Part shown: in pieces, positions 54,536 to 62,434 of the stretch
Layout of the letters: every line of letters starts with the position of its first letter
Numbering within the stretch: position 1 is the first letter of the stretch
From: Beroe ovata
Taxonomy: Eukaryota; Ctenophora; Nuda; Beroida; Beroidae
Length of the DNA: 64,000 nt
Direction of reading: 5' to 3'
Assembly (NCBI GenBank): GCA_946803715.1
Contig: CAMPET010000190.1
Span: 52,286-116,285 of the forward strand
Made by a program: the position numbers and the translations under genes
Notes under the pieces: model-generated
What the model saw: only the letters and a program-made list of their open reading frames with translations
Databases searched by the model: none
Told to the model about the DNA's origin: nothing

Positions 54536-57500
54536 CTATTTAACAAGGAAATCATGACGTACGTATCCATCCTCTCTAAACGCGGCCAGTAACAATCGAT
54601 CAGTTAAAACAGCTGTGAGACCCCAAATCTCGGGGTCGCGGGTAAGTGGTGTTGGAAATACCGGCATTTTGTACTTATCTATCCTATCCAGTGCCTCTAG
54701 CGTGTCTTTTTGACTCTCCTCTCCAGATTTTTGTGGAGAGAGACGTTGGGAAATGGCACGCCGTTGTCGAGGGTTTGTCACATTCTCATAGACCTTTTCG
54801 TAGCGGGAGTGAACTAGTTTTTCCAGTGGGACTGTGAAAATGTGTGATACCTGAGGAGAGAAATGCGTGATTATACAGTTATTATTATACAGGAGCAAGC
54901 TATGTGGTAGTATAGTGTTGAAGGGGAAAAACAATGAACAAACTATCATCTGACTCATTTCATGACGATTGAATGAGGATCAACACGACAAGAAATAATG
55001 AACTTTCCATACAAATAATCATTCAAAAATATTAAAAACTAACAGAGTTAGAAAAACTAAGTACTTACACACAATGAAATTACAACAAACCCCTTGTATT
55101 GACATATGAAAGTTTGTGGATAGGATCAACCTATCAAATGAATTAAAAATGCTGGATCTGGAACAAGTGTTCGGGCTTCACCAATTGTTCGTGTAACTAC
55201 AACAATTTTATTAATATTCTGATTACACATTGTATTTGTCCATTTCTCCCCACGCCCTCCCCACTTTTAACTGTACAGGCATTTTCACTTTCAGTTTGAC
55301 TGCATTCTCCATTTCATATTTCACCATTTTGGCGATCGATTTCAAATGTGCTGAATTTACCTGGAATATAACCAACATAACTAATGAGTTTTGGGAATAA
55401 AAATAAACTGAAAATTCATTTGAAAATGAGATAGACATTAAAATTAGCTTGCCTCATAGATAAGTTCATCATGAAGTTGGAGTACCAAATAAGCCCCTCC
55501 TGGCTGACCGCACTTCTTCTCGACCCCTCCCTCACTCCTGCCCTCGTTTCTCTGCGCGTGGGTAACGCACGTGTCAGGGTGCGTCGTCTGCAGTATCCGA
55601 TCTATATTCACCATGGCAACTTTGATAACATCAGCACCAGAACCTTGTGTCGTTGTGTTCACACATTGCCTCTCTGCTTTAGCTCGAGCCATGACATTCT
55701 CACTTGTGATGTTGGGCAAGTATCTCACTCTATTGAGAATAGTTTTCACAAAGCCATTGCTCTGGCAATTGAGTATCGTGTTGGAAATGTATGTTTTCAG
55801 ACCGCTGTATTTGTTTTTGAATCTCTCTATGAATTCGCTTGCTTCATTTTCCTCACACTCCAACTCTTGAGCCAAACTCTTGGCGCCCATGCCGTACAAA
55901 ATACCGTAACAAATCTGTTTAGCATGTTGCCTCTGCTGATCCGTTACCATGGACACGTCATCAAGATTGTTTACCTCAGCTGCGATGGCTCTGAACACAT
56001 CATTTCCAGAGTTTAGGATATTTCTGAGTTTCCTATCTCCGCTCAGATGACACATTAGTCTCAGCTCCAACTGACTATAATCAGCAGCCAGTAGAACGCA
56101 CCCATCACATGCAACAAACATGTTCCGAGGACACGCTGTTAGAGGTTCAAAACTCGGGTCCGTGGCTTTGATCTGGTCGGGAAAATCCATGGAGAAGTTG
56201 TTGTGCATGTTCTGAAGATTAGGTAGATGGAATGATACCCTCCCCGTGGCACTGTGTGTTATGCAGCTGGTATAGACACGGTACATGTTCAGAGGCTTGC
56301 AGTAAGTCCACGAGTTTTCCAGAGTGTACAGTGTCTTGCTCAGAGCAGCCGATATTTTCCTCCATAGCATAATGACTGAGGGTAGAGGGTGGAGGGGTGC
56401 AAGCCTGGTAAGAACCTCCTTACTCGTGCTAAAAAACTTCCTTTTGTTCCTAATTTTGGGAGCCGGTTTGGAGGGGTCATGTGTTGGAAGATGTAGCTTT
56501 ACAAACAGAACATCTGAAACCTCTGCCATGGAGGACAGGGAGAATTTAGTTCCTGATAACTTGTGAGCGAGTCTTTCCAAATTGTTGAGGTGTGACTTGA
56601 GGATGTTGTATTGCTTGTCGAATTCACTCTTGCTGAAACCCATACCGTTCAGTTCCATTCTCGCAAGAACTCGTATCAGAGGGCATTCCACTTCCCTGTA
56701 CGGCACCAGCATGTTCTTCTTCTTCAACTCCGAATTCAGTGCTTGGTGCAAATGCCACACTAGAAGAGCTTCTAGACAAGCTCTAGTCCTGGGTGTTCCC
56801 AGTAGAGGTACGTTGATGTCCTTGAGACCACATTGCTCGGCAAACTCGGGAATGTATCGCGACACGAGGGACATTAAACTCGGTTCCTCGGACTCGGGGT
56901 CCAGTATCCAGGCAGCGATCTTACAATCACGGAGCTCCTCGTCTATTGTTATGTTGAATTTTGTTGCCAATGCTTTCCATTGTTTCTTCACGTCGAATCC
57001 AACGCGTTGATACTTGACACCTTCTGAAATGGATGTATCACTGGTCTCATGGAGAGAGCTGTCGTCCAGAGAATGAAGTTGAAGTATCTCTGTCATTGAC
57101 TGGACCCTCGATTCCATGGTTATTGCTGGGTGGATGGCTGGAGTGCAGACAGACACATTACGACTGGGAGATTTGTTTGTGAGATTTACATAGTAGCTGT
57201 CCATTTCTCCCCAACAAAATGCAATTCCAGTGATTTCAAACTTATCACTATGGATTTCATCCCCTCTACCTGTATCTGAATCAAAGGATGACATTTGATT
57301 TACAGTGGAATCCTCGGTTGTCTGATGCATTGCAACTGATATGGAATACTGAGATTTGTTCTTCAGTTCCTCCAAAAACACATTATACAAACCAGGATCA
57401 CCAGTCACATCGATAATGGTCCAATTAGTTCCACTTTGCTCGGTACAATTCATTTGTAAAGCTCGCGTCTTAAACGGTGACTTGTTCTCGCTGCCCGTTC

Positions 57501-60500
57501 CAAATGTTATATCGAAGCTATCGATCATGTTTTCTGTACGGTTGTTCCCCATCAAAGGTGGGAGTGTATCATCAAGACTGACGACCTCAGCTGGTCCTCT
57601 CATAATTTCCATGGTATCGAGTGATTTGACATTGTCTTCCTCAAAGTCCAAAACTTTCTGTACCCTCTCAGGTACGATTACGTCGGCAGTCGATTTAAAT
57701 TCTAGGGGAGATTTTGTTGGAGATCCTGACTTCATTTTCTTACTGACACTTTTTCGGGGGCTTGCGGTCTTACGTTTCGGTGATTTGGCCTTTGCTTCTT
57801 TCTCGCTTATTGCAAGGAGATCCTTGTCTATATCAAGGAAGTCCCAAGCGGATAAGTTGATTTCGTCAAATTGTGATGAGATGTCAAGACAATTTGAATC
57901 GATACTTTCTCGTTTGGTAGATGATGCTTTGTCTTTAGGACTTGGATCCTCCTTACCTGGCTTCACAACACTGGATGAGGCCCTTAGCAGGACACTCTTC
58001 CTTGGTTTGTGAGGGGTGAGGATTTCAGGAATATCTAACACGGAAATACACTCCTCATTGTTATCATTGGTAGGTTGATGCTCAGTTGTTCCAATACTGG
58101 TATTGTGAGTCTTTCTCTTCCGTTGATCCTTCTTCCTCTTGCCCCCTGTCCCAACACTACTGTACAGTGCATTGGTTGTATTACCAGACTTATTCTTCTG
58201 CAAAATATCTGACAAGTTCACCTGTACATTCATCTGACAAAGGTCGTCTTGCAGGAGCTCTTTTGCATTGTCTATCATATTGGCAGCGGCCTCCAGCTCC
58301 GTCAGTCCATGTCTCTTGGCAAGCCAGCTCCTCCCCCCTCCCTCCCTCTCACTGGCAAATGGCAGAACACCTTGCAGGACATGTTTGATAGTGTCTGGAT
58401 CGGCAGAAGAGAGTTGAGCTACACCTGTATAGCCAGCATTGTACAACACTCTAGCTAGTGGTCCGGTTATCAGCTGGACTCTGACCAGGTCACACAACTC
58501 TCTGTGAACCCCACTGAATAGCCTCACTTGGAGATCAGATAGGAGAAGTCCTAGAGCAGAGAAGCCCAGTCTGTCACAGAAGACGGCTACCTGACCAGCA
58601 TAGCTGGATGCGCTCGACTGCAAAGACTGCAGCTGACCTCTGTTTGTGGAGTATTTCCTTGCTATCTGATCTATGGGAACTTCCTCAATCACCTCTAGTA
58701 AAGCTAGTGCTGCAAAGAATCTGATATGAGTTTGAAGGGCAAGCCGCTGCGAGTCCGTGCGGGATTGTGGCATTCTTGAGGAGGCAGCAACCAGGAACCC
58801 CTCGTTCACCCCCACATTCTCCGCTGCCCGCTGGTGTGCAGGAGACAGCCCGCACCAGATAGAGTAGAAACAGTACCAGTCAGGGTTACTCCAGGTCTTG
58901 TAAAACGAGAGGGGAGTCACCTCGTATACGAGTTGCAACTCAGTTTCCAGGTTGAAGTTCCTCCTCGCTTTCTGGAGGTGAGTCAACAGTTCCAATGCTT
59001 CTCCAGGTGGTAAAGAAGAGTTGAGGGTACCACAGCCCAGTTTTGTCGCTTTGTACGTCTTGCAACCTTCCGCATCTATGTCCTCTGAAATGAATTCGTA
59101 ACTAGTGAGAAACTCAAGGGCAGATTTCAGAATTTCTTCATCCTGCTTCTCTTCTGCTGCAAGAAGAGTACACTGGAAATACTTAATCACATCATCTTCT
59201 CTACTAACCATTCCTCCTGCTATCACCTCCAACATTGCCCTTTTCATGGCGGTTCCCAAGAACTCTCCGCCGAGACAACTGGACAAGTGGTTGAGCACAT
59301 TGGAAACAATCCTAGCCACAGCGTTCCCATCCCCCGGACCGCAGATCAGGACGCTCTCCCCCGCTTCATCCACCCCCATCCTGCCAGCCCGCCCTGACAT
59401 CTGCTGATAGAGGAGTGGGGACATGTAGTTAGGTCCTGCCTTGGGTGACCTGATGATAACCCGTCTGGCAGGGAGGTTGACCCCAGCACTAAGAGTTGTT
59501 GTTGCTATGAGAACCCGGATTATTCCTCTCCGGAATCCACTCTCGACCACCTCCCTCTCCTCCACTGTGAGACCAGCGTGGTGGTATGCGATACCACACC
59601 TGACTGTGCGAGCTAACACGGGGTCCAGTGTCATGGGTAATCTCTCCAGCTGTGACACAATGTCATTCAATCCTGCTACATCTAGACATGATGTCTCCAT
59701 AGCCCCAGCCACCAACTCACACAGTCGCTCAGTCCAGGCTTTGTTGGGAGCAAACACAAGGACGTTATGTCCACTGGACAATGTCTCCTGACACAATAAC
59801 ACCAGATGATCGTGTTGTTGCGAGGGAAGTTCCCGCAGAGGCTTACCCGTGATGTCATATACAATGTTACCCGTCTTGACAAACTGAGTGAGGGGAACTG
59901 GTCTGAAATCAGTGGTGTACAGAGCAGCATCCAGCCACCTGCTGAGCAGGTCCAGGTTAGGGAGGGTGGCACTCATGCCGACAATCTGCAGAGAGGAGGC
60001 AGTCTGGCGGGAGTGGTAGAGTAGTTTAGTGAGGAGCAGCTCGAGTAAGTATCCCCGGGAAGAGTCACCCACCATGTGCACCTCATCAACCACCACACAC
60101 CCCACCTCACCTAACTCACCTTTCTCAACCATCCTGTTCACTATTCCGTTACCTTTCTCTATCGTACACACCGCAATATCAACTTTACTGATACCACCAG
60201 CAGGGCCCTTGGTACCGAAGAAACCGCCGATTTTGAGTCCCGTTCCCTCCAAAATACCCTGTAAATAGGACGTCTTCTCACCAGCTACACTCACGAATGG
60301 TAAAATAAACAACACTTTCTGACGGGTCTCTAGGACCCGCTTTAGTAGGAGTAACTCAGCGACCAGTGTTTTCCCAGCTGATGTAGGAGCGCAATAAACC
60401 AGGTTTTTGCCCGACAAAACACCATCCAGTGATAAACACTCCGCCTGCCATGGAAACATGTGAGTTATTCCCGCCTCGTTATAACGGCCCAGCACGTCAC

Positions 60501-62434
60501 GAGGCAAGCCCCATCGTTTTAACTCGCACATTTCTCTTGTTATAGACGGTGGGACATTGGAATCAGTTTGGTTCGTGGTCATGGCAACTGTTTTTGGAGG
60601 ACTGGTCAAGGGTGGTTTATTCGATAGTTTTGGTTTTTCGTCACGTCCTTCCGATGGAAGAGGGGGTTGTTTTGATACCAGAGCAGTTTGTGGCTGATGA
60701 CCAGAATCATTGACAGTCTTGTTTTCCCGCGAGTGAGATGTTTTTCTCTGGGGGCTTACAACACTACATGGCGGGTTGCCAACTGTATCACCGGGGAGTG
60801 CTGAGCGGGTAAACTGCTTGTTCACTTTTGAGAGGAACGAGGACAGCTTATCAGTAGGTTTTTGCTCCAGGATCTTTTTACCTGAAATAATGCTGAAATG
60901 AAGCAACATGCCCCTAAAACATAATTGATTTAACAAAAAGACCAAGTTTCTGCAGATTCAAAGTTGAATCTCACTTGAATTCAGCGGTTTGTTCTGGATA
61001 AGAGGCAAGACATCGAATGATAAACTGGACAGTCCAAATGTTATAGTCTTGTTATACGGCTGCATGCAAGTGACCTGAAATCAATGGTTCGTGTTTCAAA
61101 GTAGAGTTCTGATAGTCTGATAATTCAAACCCAATATATGAAATGATGTGAGCAATCTAGAAATCACTTGCACAATCACCTTGACTTTATCCCATGTCTT
61201 TTCAAGAGCACTCTCAATTATTTTGTCTCGGGAAAATACTTTGGTTCTGCAGAGGTTGCTTCCAGATTTAGACTCCGAGGGATTCATAAACTGACTAGTT
61301 TCGATCAGTTCCTGGGATATTACGGGTCAAGAACCTTAGATAGGTGAAGTGGTCAATACAACAAAATATAGAGAGCATCCAACTGAACACATATTAACTC
61401 AAGATTCTTGTCTCAAAAGTGAGGTTACCTGCCATGAATCCTTGGGACAACCTGTCAAAGAAACAGAGACAGCTACAAAAGCAGAACCGTTATTCACAAT
61501 TTGAACTCCGGTAATACGGCAAGGTGATGGTAACTTGAGCTCCACAGAAGCCTGTTTGGGTAAATTTTAGCTGATATAGGAAACAAAAAAGTGGGTTGAG
61601 TGATTACATTGAATAAGAAGCAATTTCTCAGAATTGAAAACAAATATATTTCAACACTGTTGGTGATCTAATGTGCTACATCTTTGATAAAGTGTTACCT
61701 TGACAACACCATGCTCTTTAGTAGACCATTTCAAATTAACATCAGGCGAAAGGAGGTTATTAGCACAGCTAACATGATGCTCTGAAGTGCATGACACTAT
61801 ACTGGAACCATGGACATAGCTGCTCATCCTATGCAATTAACATTTGTTGTTAGGACACATATAAAATCCTCCTCACTCTGTATATCATAGCAACCCAAAC
61901 TGACCTCACTTGCAGACAGAGTGAAGTTGTGATCCTCGTAGTGCCCAATGTAACCAACACACCCGTACACGTTGTCTAGCTTGAGACTCATGACTGGACG
62001 AGACAGACAACCCCAAACTGAATGAGGTTGTACACCGATTTCCTCATCCATCTCACGGATACTAGTCTCCTGAGCTGTCTCGCCTTCGTCACATCTTCCA
62101 CCCGGAAAACTGAGAAAAATTGGTGAGGCATTGGTAAGGCATTGGTGAGACAGGCATCAGAATGAGGCGAGAATTAGAATTATGGAGCAGCAAGGGGCAC
62201 TCAGCCATTCACTGACACCAATCCTCACCTGATTTGACCAGTGTGGGAGTTGAGAGTTTCTGTTCGTCTAGTGTAAAGGAGGCTAAGTACTCCGGATCTG
62301 TGACATATTGGGAGAAAAACACCACAAGAGGTTTTGTTGAGTTTCTGGGGCAGGTCAACAAGTCGGGGAGTGAGGCGTTTCCTCAATAGTGACAAGCCAT
62401 TCGACCTCTGTATCCAAGATATATCCACTCGCAT
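54536..62434 (-). CDS. Nudix hydrolase, NUDT8/NUDT7-like CoA diphosphatase, with a gene inside its intron 2
   Basis: Three exons: 62229-62434, 61905-62109 and 54536-54850, in phase, 241 residues. Exon 1 gives KTSCGVFLPICHRSGVLSLL. Exon 2 carries a complete Nudix box (residues 73-95, GRCDEGE with REMDEEIGV). Exon 3 gives VSHIFTVPLEKLVHS and WGLTAVLTDRLLLAAF. The whole length matches mitochondrial/peroxisomal CoA-diphosphatase relatives of about 240 residues. The join SASE/VSHIFTVPL is natural for this family and phase 0 on both sides. The exon 2 donor is GTCAGT. Intron 2 (about 7.05 kb) contains the entire XRCC1-NTD/Pol theta gene on the same strand, an unusual arrangement that RNA data should confirm. 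Confidence 0.75.
55223..61836 (-). CDS. POLQ: XRCC1 N-terminal domain fused to DNA polymerase theta
   Basis: Six exons: 61699-61827 (ATG also at 61836), 61429-61551, 61180-61311, 60975-61074, 55453-60881 and 55223-55360. The frame closes at about 2016 residues. Exons 1-4 encode an XRCC1-type N-terminal domain: SIVSCTSEHHVSCANNLL, NNGSAFVAV, FMNPSESKSGSN, EKTWDKVK and QPYNKTITFGLS each align with human XRCC1. The giant exon is Pol theta: helicase-like ATPase with Walker A (APTSAGKT), DEVH and QMSGRAGRMG; a long low-complexity middle; and an A-family polymerase with LLAADYSQLELR, QICYGILYGMG and LQLHDELIYE. The last exon ends GRAWGEMDKYNV. The final intron is GC-AG. The first ATG inside the Pol theta exon is deep in the linker, which supports use of the upstream exons. 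Pol theta performs microhomology-mediated end joining, and XRCC1 scaffolds repair ligase. Confidence 0.8.

What the first reader, a model, noticed from the sequence alone, without database searches (positions are those of the whole stretch)
55223..61836. XRCC1 N-terminal domain fused in frame to DNA polymerase theta
Four small exons encode a recognisable XRCC1 N-terminal domain. They run straight into the Pol theta exon on the same strand with matching phase 1 on both sides (A at 60975, GT at 60881). The six-exon frame closes exactly at the Pol theta stop. In well-studied animals XRCC1 and POLQ are separate genes. Both act in alternative (microhomology-mediated) end joining, so a fusion could bring a DNA-nick or Pol-beta-type binding module and polymerase/helicase together. 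I know of no description of this fusion, but I could not search.
Basis: partly seen in the sequence, partly recalled or inferred. Interest (0 to 1): 0.93.

Follow-up and report, generated by a model that had tools for sequence, protein, structure and literature searches.

The report
XRCC1 domain fused to Pol theta
In what looks like a comb-jelly genome, the gene for the DNA end-joining polymerase theta appears to begin with a complete copy of the front domain of another repair protein, XRCC1, so one protein may both grip broken DNA and fill it in.

Summary
Six minus-strand exons (61827-55223) splice into one 2016-residue frame. Residues 8-147 are a complete XRCC1 N-terminal domain (XRCC1_N, E=3.3e-43), followed by a full DNA polymerase theta. 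The genome also keeps a separate XRCC1 with two BRCT domains, so the fused domain is an extra copy.

One other database protein, P0004 (69% identical in the helicase), also has an XRCC1_N match directly before its Pol theta helicase; its model is flawed and its domain much diverged. P0001 (87%) keeps the linker up to the splice acceptor. An assembly accident is therefore unlikely. Glutamate receptors of this genome match solved ctenophore receptors best, so the host is probably a comb jelly. The fusion lies inside an intron of a NUDT7/8-like gene on the same strand.

The human Pol beta contact V86 is glutamate here, so docking by the known interface is doubtful. My best guess is a built-in nick/gap-binding module for theta-mediated end joining. 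No transcript evidence was available. My literature searches found no description of this fusion.

The parts
61699..61827 (-). Exon 1: start codon and first part of the XRCC1 N-terminal domain, with the conserved cysteines C13 and C21
   Evidence: splice model; six-frame XRCC1_N match; residue mapping
61429..61551 (-). Exon 2: XRCC1 N-terminal domain, middle
61180..61311 (-). Exon 3: XRCC1 N-terminal domain
60975..61074 (-). Exon 4: end of the XRCC1 N-terminal domain, ends in phase 1
   Evidence: not found alone
60882..60974 (-). Intron 4, 93 nt, GT-AG, the junction between XRCC1 domain and Pol theta; no AATAAA seen in it; reading on into it meets a stop after a few codons
   Evidence: sequence
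55453..60881 (-). Exon 5: linker, helicase-like domain, POLQ helical domain, central region, most of the family A polymerase domain
55361..55452 (-). Intron 5, 92 nt, GC-AG
55223..55360 (-). Exon 6: end of the polymerase domain and stop codon
62229..62434 (-). Exon 1 of the host NUDT7/8-like gene (start codon at 62434 is only a candidate)
61905..62109 (-). Exon 2 of the NUDT7/8-like gene with the Nudix box
54536..54850 (-). Last exon of the NUDT7/8-like gene, beyond the Pol theta stop; the fusion lies in the intron 61904-54851
   Evidence: (match to NUDT7 runs over this junction)

Best explanation
The locus encodes one two-part protein: an extra copy of the XRCC1 N-terminal domain, a linker of about 120 residues, then a complete DNA polymerase theta. 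Shown by sequence: domain identity, frame, splice phases, the separate XRCC1 gene, and the same domain order in a second protein model. Inferred: the gene is transcribed and spliced as one mRNA. Inferred mechanism: the XRCC1 domain binds nicked or gapped DNA, as I recall for the human domain, and holds Pol theta on annealed, gapped end-joining intermediates or on single-strand gaps during fill-in. The fusion has no BRCT domain in the parts scanned, so ligase III and poly(ADP-ribose) binding would stay with the ordinary XRCC1. The conserved C13/C21 pair could make the module redox-sensitive. I put the fusion itself at about 0.88 and the nick/gap-tether role at about 0.4; the figure below is for the whole statement.
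For: One open frame of 2016 codons over six exons. XRCC1_N E=3.3e-43 and Pol theta domains; PDB matches. Separate XRCC1 on C52 with XRCC1_N, BRCT and LIG3_BRCT. P0004 has XRCC1_N at 285-370 and DEAD from 426. P0001 is similar to the fusion from the exon 5 acceptor on, upstream of the first in-frame ATG at 60582, and two out-of-frame ATGs (60769, 60710) precede that ATG. Helicase and polymerase motifs intact. C13, C21 and F68 keep the human C12, C20 and F67. XRCC1-LIG3 acts in the last step of microhomology end joining in zebrafish and mammals (PMC12426944, passages).
Against: No transcript was seen. The search seeded on the fused domain alone found nothing (0 of 382 candidates at E<=1), not even P0004. 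P0004 is a flawed model with repeated segments; its NTD matches only profile positions 53-146, shows no cysteine pair in the alignment, and the window NTD is only its 11th best of 15 BLAST matches. The tree leaves the origin open (1 of 15 inner branches starred). Nick binding was not tested. A reference title seen reports that XRCC1 is not required for translocations by backup end joining.
Confidence: 0.55

Rival explanations
1. Two separate proteins from neighbouring frames: a short XRCC1-NTD protein (intron 4 retained, stop a few codons later) and a Pol theta translated from its own start in exon 5, perhaps separated by spliced-leader trans-splicing at 60881.
For: Reading through intron 4 gives a stop after a few codons. 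[quoted passage not shown] Pol theta from the ATG at 60582 would still hold the whole helicase.
Against: No AATAAA in the 93-nt intron (sequence). Two out-of-frame ATGs precede 60582. P0001 is similar upstream of that ATG, up to the acceptor. P0004 is one continuous model. The Hormiphora leader pattern is not frequent here: 3 hits, all with 3 mismatches, against 1 in the control, though this species may have another leader.
Confidence: 0.1
2. A real fusion in which the XRCC1 domain is a passenger: it arose by chance insertion or exon shuffling and adds no function, and is drifting.
For: Fusion NTD and P0004 NTD sit on very long branches (end branches 2.01 and 6.48). P0004's NTD lacks a recognisable first part.
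Against: In the window the domain is complete, without stops, keeps both cysteines and F67, and is 50% identical over 137 residues to this genome's own XRCC1.
Confidence: 0.15
3. A real fusion in which the XRCC1 domain recruits Pol beta to Pol theta.
For: The NTD of human XRCC1 binds Pol beta through a pocket with F67 and V86 (PMC6614843, passages). F67 is kept. Pol beta exists in the genome.
Against: V86 is E85 in the fusion; V88R in mouse, equal to human V86, loses Pol beta binding (PMC3786324, passages). The Pol beta loop positions of V303 and V306 read T and S by eye. This genome's XRCC1 also has N at V86, so the interface may simply have changed in this lineage.
Confidence: 0.12
4. An assembly or gene-model artefact that brings XRCC1 and Pol theta exons together.
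Against: The junction lies inside a 130-kb contig, 93 nt apart; P0004 shows the same order in another record; the outer exons of the host Nudix gene flank it on both sides in order.
Confidence: 0.03

Closest known systems
DNA polymerase theta (POLQ)
   Same: Helicase-like domain, POLQ helical domain, family A polymerase, motifs APTSAGKT, DYSQLELR and HDE
   Different: Extra N-terminal XRCC1_N domain; of the 120 listed Pol theta relatives (of 2240 hits) only P0004 shows PF01834 in the precomputed column
XRCC1
   Same: Complete N-terminal domain, about 50% identical over 137 residues to the XRCC1 of the same genome
   Different: No BRCT domain in the parts of the fusion scanned (residues 1-1048 and the exon 5 frame), hence no LIG3 or PAR binding part; human V86 is E85
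P0004, EukProt model sb/3460354 (species recalled as Pleurobrachia bachei, not confirmed)
   Same: XRCC1_N match directly before a Pol theta helicase 69% identical to the window's
   Different: Much more diverged NTD without its first third, short linker, repeated segments in the model

Membership tests
DNA polymerase theta | Helicase-like domain and POLQ helical domain | tested here: met
   DEAD, Helicase_C, HTH_61, POLQ_helical 2.8e-43; Pol theta structures head the PDB list
DNA polymerase theta | Family A polymerase domain with catalytic motifs at the C end | tested here: met
   DNA_pol_A 1.2e-88; DYSQLELR at 1762 and HDE at 1965
DNA polymerase theta | End-joining activity | not testable with these tools
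   needs biochemistry
XRCC1 | XRCC1_N domain | tested here: met
   3.3e-43, profile 7-147 of 148; 1xna 1.2e-32
XRCC1 | Two BRCT domains, the second of LIG3-binding type | tested here: not met
   None in residues 1-1048 or the exon 5 frame; present in the C52 gene. The fusion is therefore not an XRCC1
XRCC1 NTD as Pol beta docking site | Human contact residues F67 and V86 | tested here: not met
   F67 kept (F68), V86 is E85
XRCC1 NTD redox switch | Cysteine pair C12/C20 | tested here: met
   C13 and C21; the disulfide itself not testable here; pair not seen in P0004
Parallel nested intronic gene | Whole gene inside one intron of another gene on the same strand | tested here: met
   Nudix exons 62109-61905 and 54850-54536 flank it; joined protein matches NUDT7 over that junction

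The most novel reading that the evidence does not exclude
In comb jellies, polymerase theta has carried its own XRCC1 nick-binding, redox-sensitive domain since before this lineage split from that of P0004. Break recognition and microhomology fill-in are coupled in one chain, beside an intact ordinary XRCC1, a Pol beta, a Ku-family protein and a ligase IV-like enzyme.
Probability: 0.4. Interest if true: 0.78.

Novelty: new variant of a known kind. Interest (0 to 1): 0.64.

Why it matters
How Pol theta is guided to its substrates and handed over to the XRCC1-LIG3 ligation step is, as far as I know, unsettled, and Pol theta is a drug target. A natural fusion says that in at least one animal lineage it was useful or tolerable to tie the XRCC1 nick/gap domain straight to Pol theta, a testable hint that the two act on the same intermediate. 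It would also be a lineage marker in a phylum whose DNA repair is little studied: no held paper contains both ctenophore and XRCC1.

Tried and rejected
Pol theta replacing a lost Pol beta: the palm family PF14792 found nothing, but the thumb family PF14791 and a human Pol beta query found an exon-split Pol beta on C2. Dropped.

Pol theta compensating for lost classical end joining: one Ku-family locus and one ligase locus, best matched by DNA ligase 4, were found. Dropped as a main explanation; other Ku and ligase genes may be exon-split and missed.

A larger fusion that includes the Nudix exons: joining 61905 to the acceptor before 61828 runs into a stop in that frame.

Single origin of the two fused domains by tree: unresolved. 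An XRCC1-like paralogue without NTD as the donor: P0127 and P0148 in other records lack XRCC1_N in the precomputed column (P0127 also), but this genome searched with P0127 gives only the C52 XRCC1 and one weak match on C21 (3 matches).

Confirming the species of P0004 from papers: one search gave one paper, whose number was a reference id; one search listed 10 of 3,383 papers, none with Pleurobrachia. Not confirmed. Spliced leader of Hormiphora: not frequent here. Structure prediction was not run, because the spliced protein is not read letter for letter from the window.

Full report
What was checked. Exons 61827-61699, 61551-61429, 61311-61180, 61074-60975, 60881-55453 and 55360-55223 join without an inner stop into 2016 codons. 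Four of the five introns are GT-AG and one (55452-55361) is GC-AG. The critical intron is 93 nt, phase 1.

What the parts are. Pfam gives XRCC1_N over residues 8-147 (E=3.3e-43, profile 7-147 of 148), then DEAD, Helicase_C, HTH_61 and POLQ_helical, and DNA_pol_A on the exon 5 frame. The first 177 residues match three PDB sequences, all XRCC1. For the exon 5 frame the first 13 of 60 shown PDB rows are Pol theta. The motifs APTSAGKT, DYSQLELR and HDE are present.

Not the genome's only XRCC1. PF01834 gives four matches at two loci: three exons here and a 626-residue open frame on C52. The C52 protein holds XRCC1_N, two BRCT stretches and LIG3_BRCT. Family A polymerase matches lie at three loci: here, C32 and C6. 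C32 best matches solved Pol nu; C6 looks like Pol gamma by eye. So this is the only Pol theta seen, and it is the one with the extra domain.

Evidence from relatives. A search seeded on the Pol theta helicase gave 2240 hits among 7975 scored candidates; 120 were listed. The four best are P0001 (87%), P0002 (79%), P0003 (80%) and P0004 (69%); the others listed are at 43-55%. P0001-P0003 read like open frames of the large exon, so they cannot show upstream exons. P0004 can: XRCC1_N at 285-370 (E=4.6e-9, profile 53-146), DEAD from 426. In the precomputed domain column P0004 alone of the 120 listed carries PF01834. Against this stand P0004's defects: repeated segments, no recognisable first third of the domain, and only about 30% identity over 115 residues to the window NTD, its 11th best of 15 BLAST matches. 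P0001 resembles the fusion from the exon 5 acceptor onward, which argues that translation enters exon 5 from upstream. The search seeded on the fused NTD found 0 of 382 candidates at E<=1 and so missed P0004 too. A tree of 18 NTDs is largely unresolved, with fusion and P0004 on very long branches.

Host. Two intronless glutamate receptors of this genome score best against ML032222a iGluR, which fills the top three rows in 2 of 2 queries; 4zdm is fourth in one and far down, below vertebrate receptors, in the other. I recall these as Mnemiopsis and Pleurobrachia proteins. The id style of P0004 is recalled as Pleurobrachia; papers did not confirm it. I take the host to be a ctenophore; the genome held has 77.8 Mb in 534 contigs.

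Setting. On the same strand, exons 62434-62229 (start only a candidate), 62109-61905 and 54850-54536 join into a Nudix protein (NUDIX E=9.4e-12) whose match to human NUDT7 runs over the last junction (coordinates). I call it NUDT8-like from recall. The fusion thus lies wholly in an intron of that gene, in parallel orientation. Nested intronic genes, many of them parallel, and trans-spliced leaders are described for the ctenophore Hormiphora (PMC8527503, passages). Part of its leader, searched here, gave 3 hits, all with three mismatches, against 1 in the control.

How it may work. The LIG3-XRCC1 complex has a dominant role in the last step of microhomology end joining in zebrafish and mammals (PMC12426944, passages), although a reference title seen reports no need for XRCC1 in translocations by backup end joining. 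The XRCC1 NTD meets Pol beta through F67 and V86 (PMC6614843, passages), and the oxidised C12-C20 form binds tighter (PMC3786324, passages). Here the cysteines and F67 are kept and V86 is E. Pol beta exists, but by eye the loop positions of V303 and V306 read T and S. Nick/gap binding, a property of the NTD that I recall, is then the likelier use. None of this was measured.

Literature. No held paper contains both ctenophore and XRCC1 (0). The listings (15 of 15; 15 of 225; 6 of 6; 12 of 140; 12 of 121) show no title or abstract start that announces such a fusion; I did not read these papers through. In the rotifer repair paper PMC6264785 the terms fusion and fused have 0 occurrences. The library lacks most subscription papers and bioRxiv is not held as a library.

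Noticed in passing
window 62434-54536, minus strand: The fusion gene lies wholly inside an intron of a NUDT7/8-like Nudix gene on the same strand.
   Followed up: yes
P0125 and P0148: P0148, an XRCC1-like protein without XRCC1_N, and P0125, a full XRCC1, are both reported from contigs of 104,215 bases, so they may be tandem paralogues; P0127 is similar and has repeated BRCT domains.
   Followed up: partly
L001, L012, L013; window 60881-55453: XRCC1, glutamate receptor and most of Pol theta are single large open frames in this animal genome, with few introns.
   Followed up: no
window 54265-53342, minus strand: A large open frame just downstream looks by eye like the ubiquinone methyltransferase COQ5.
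   Followed up: no
L011 (C2 380754-380996): The palm family search missed an exon-split Pol beta that other queries found: absence by one family search in this genome is not safe.
   Followed up: yes
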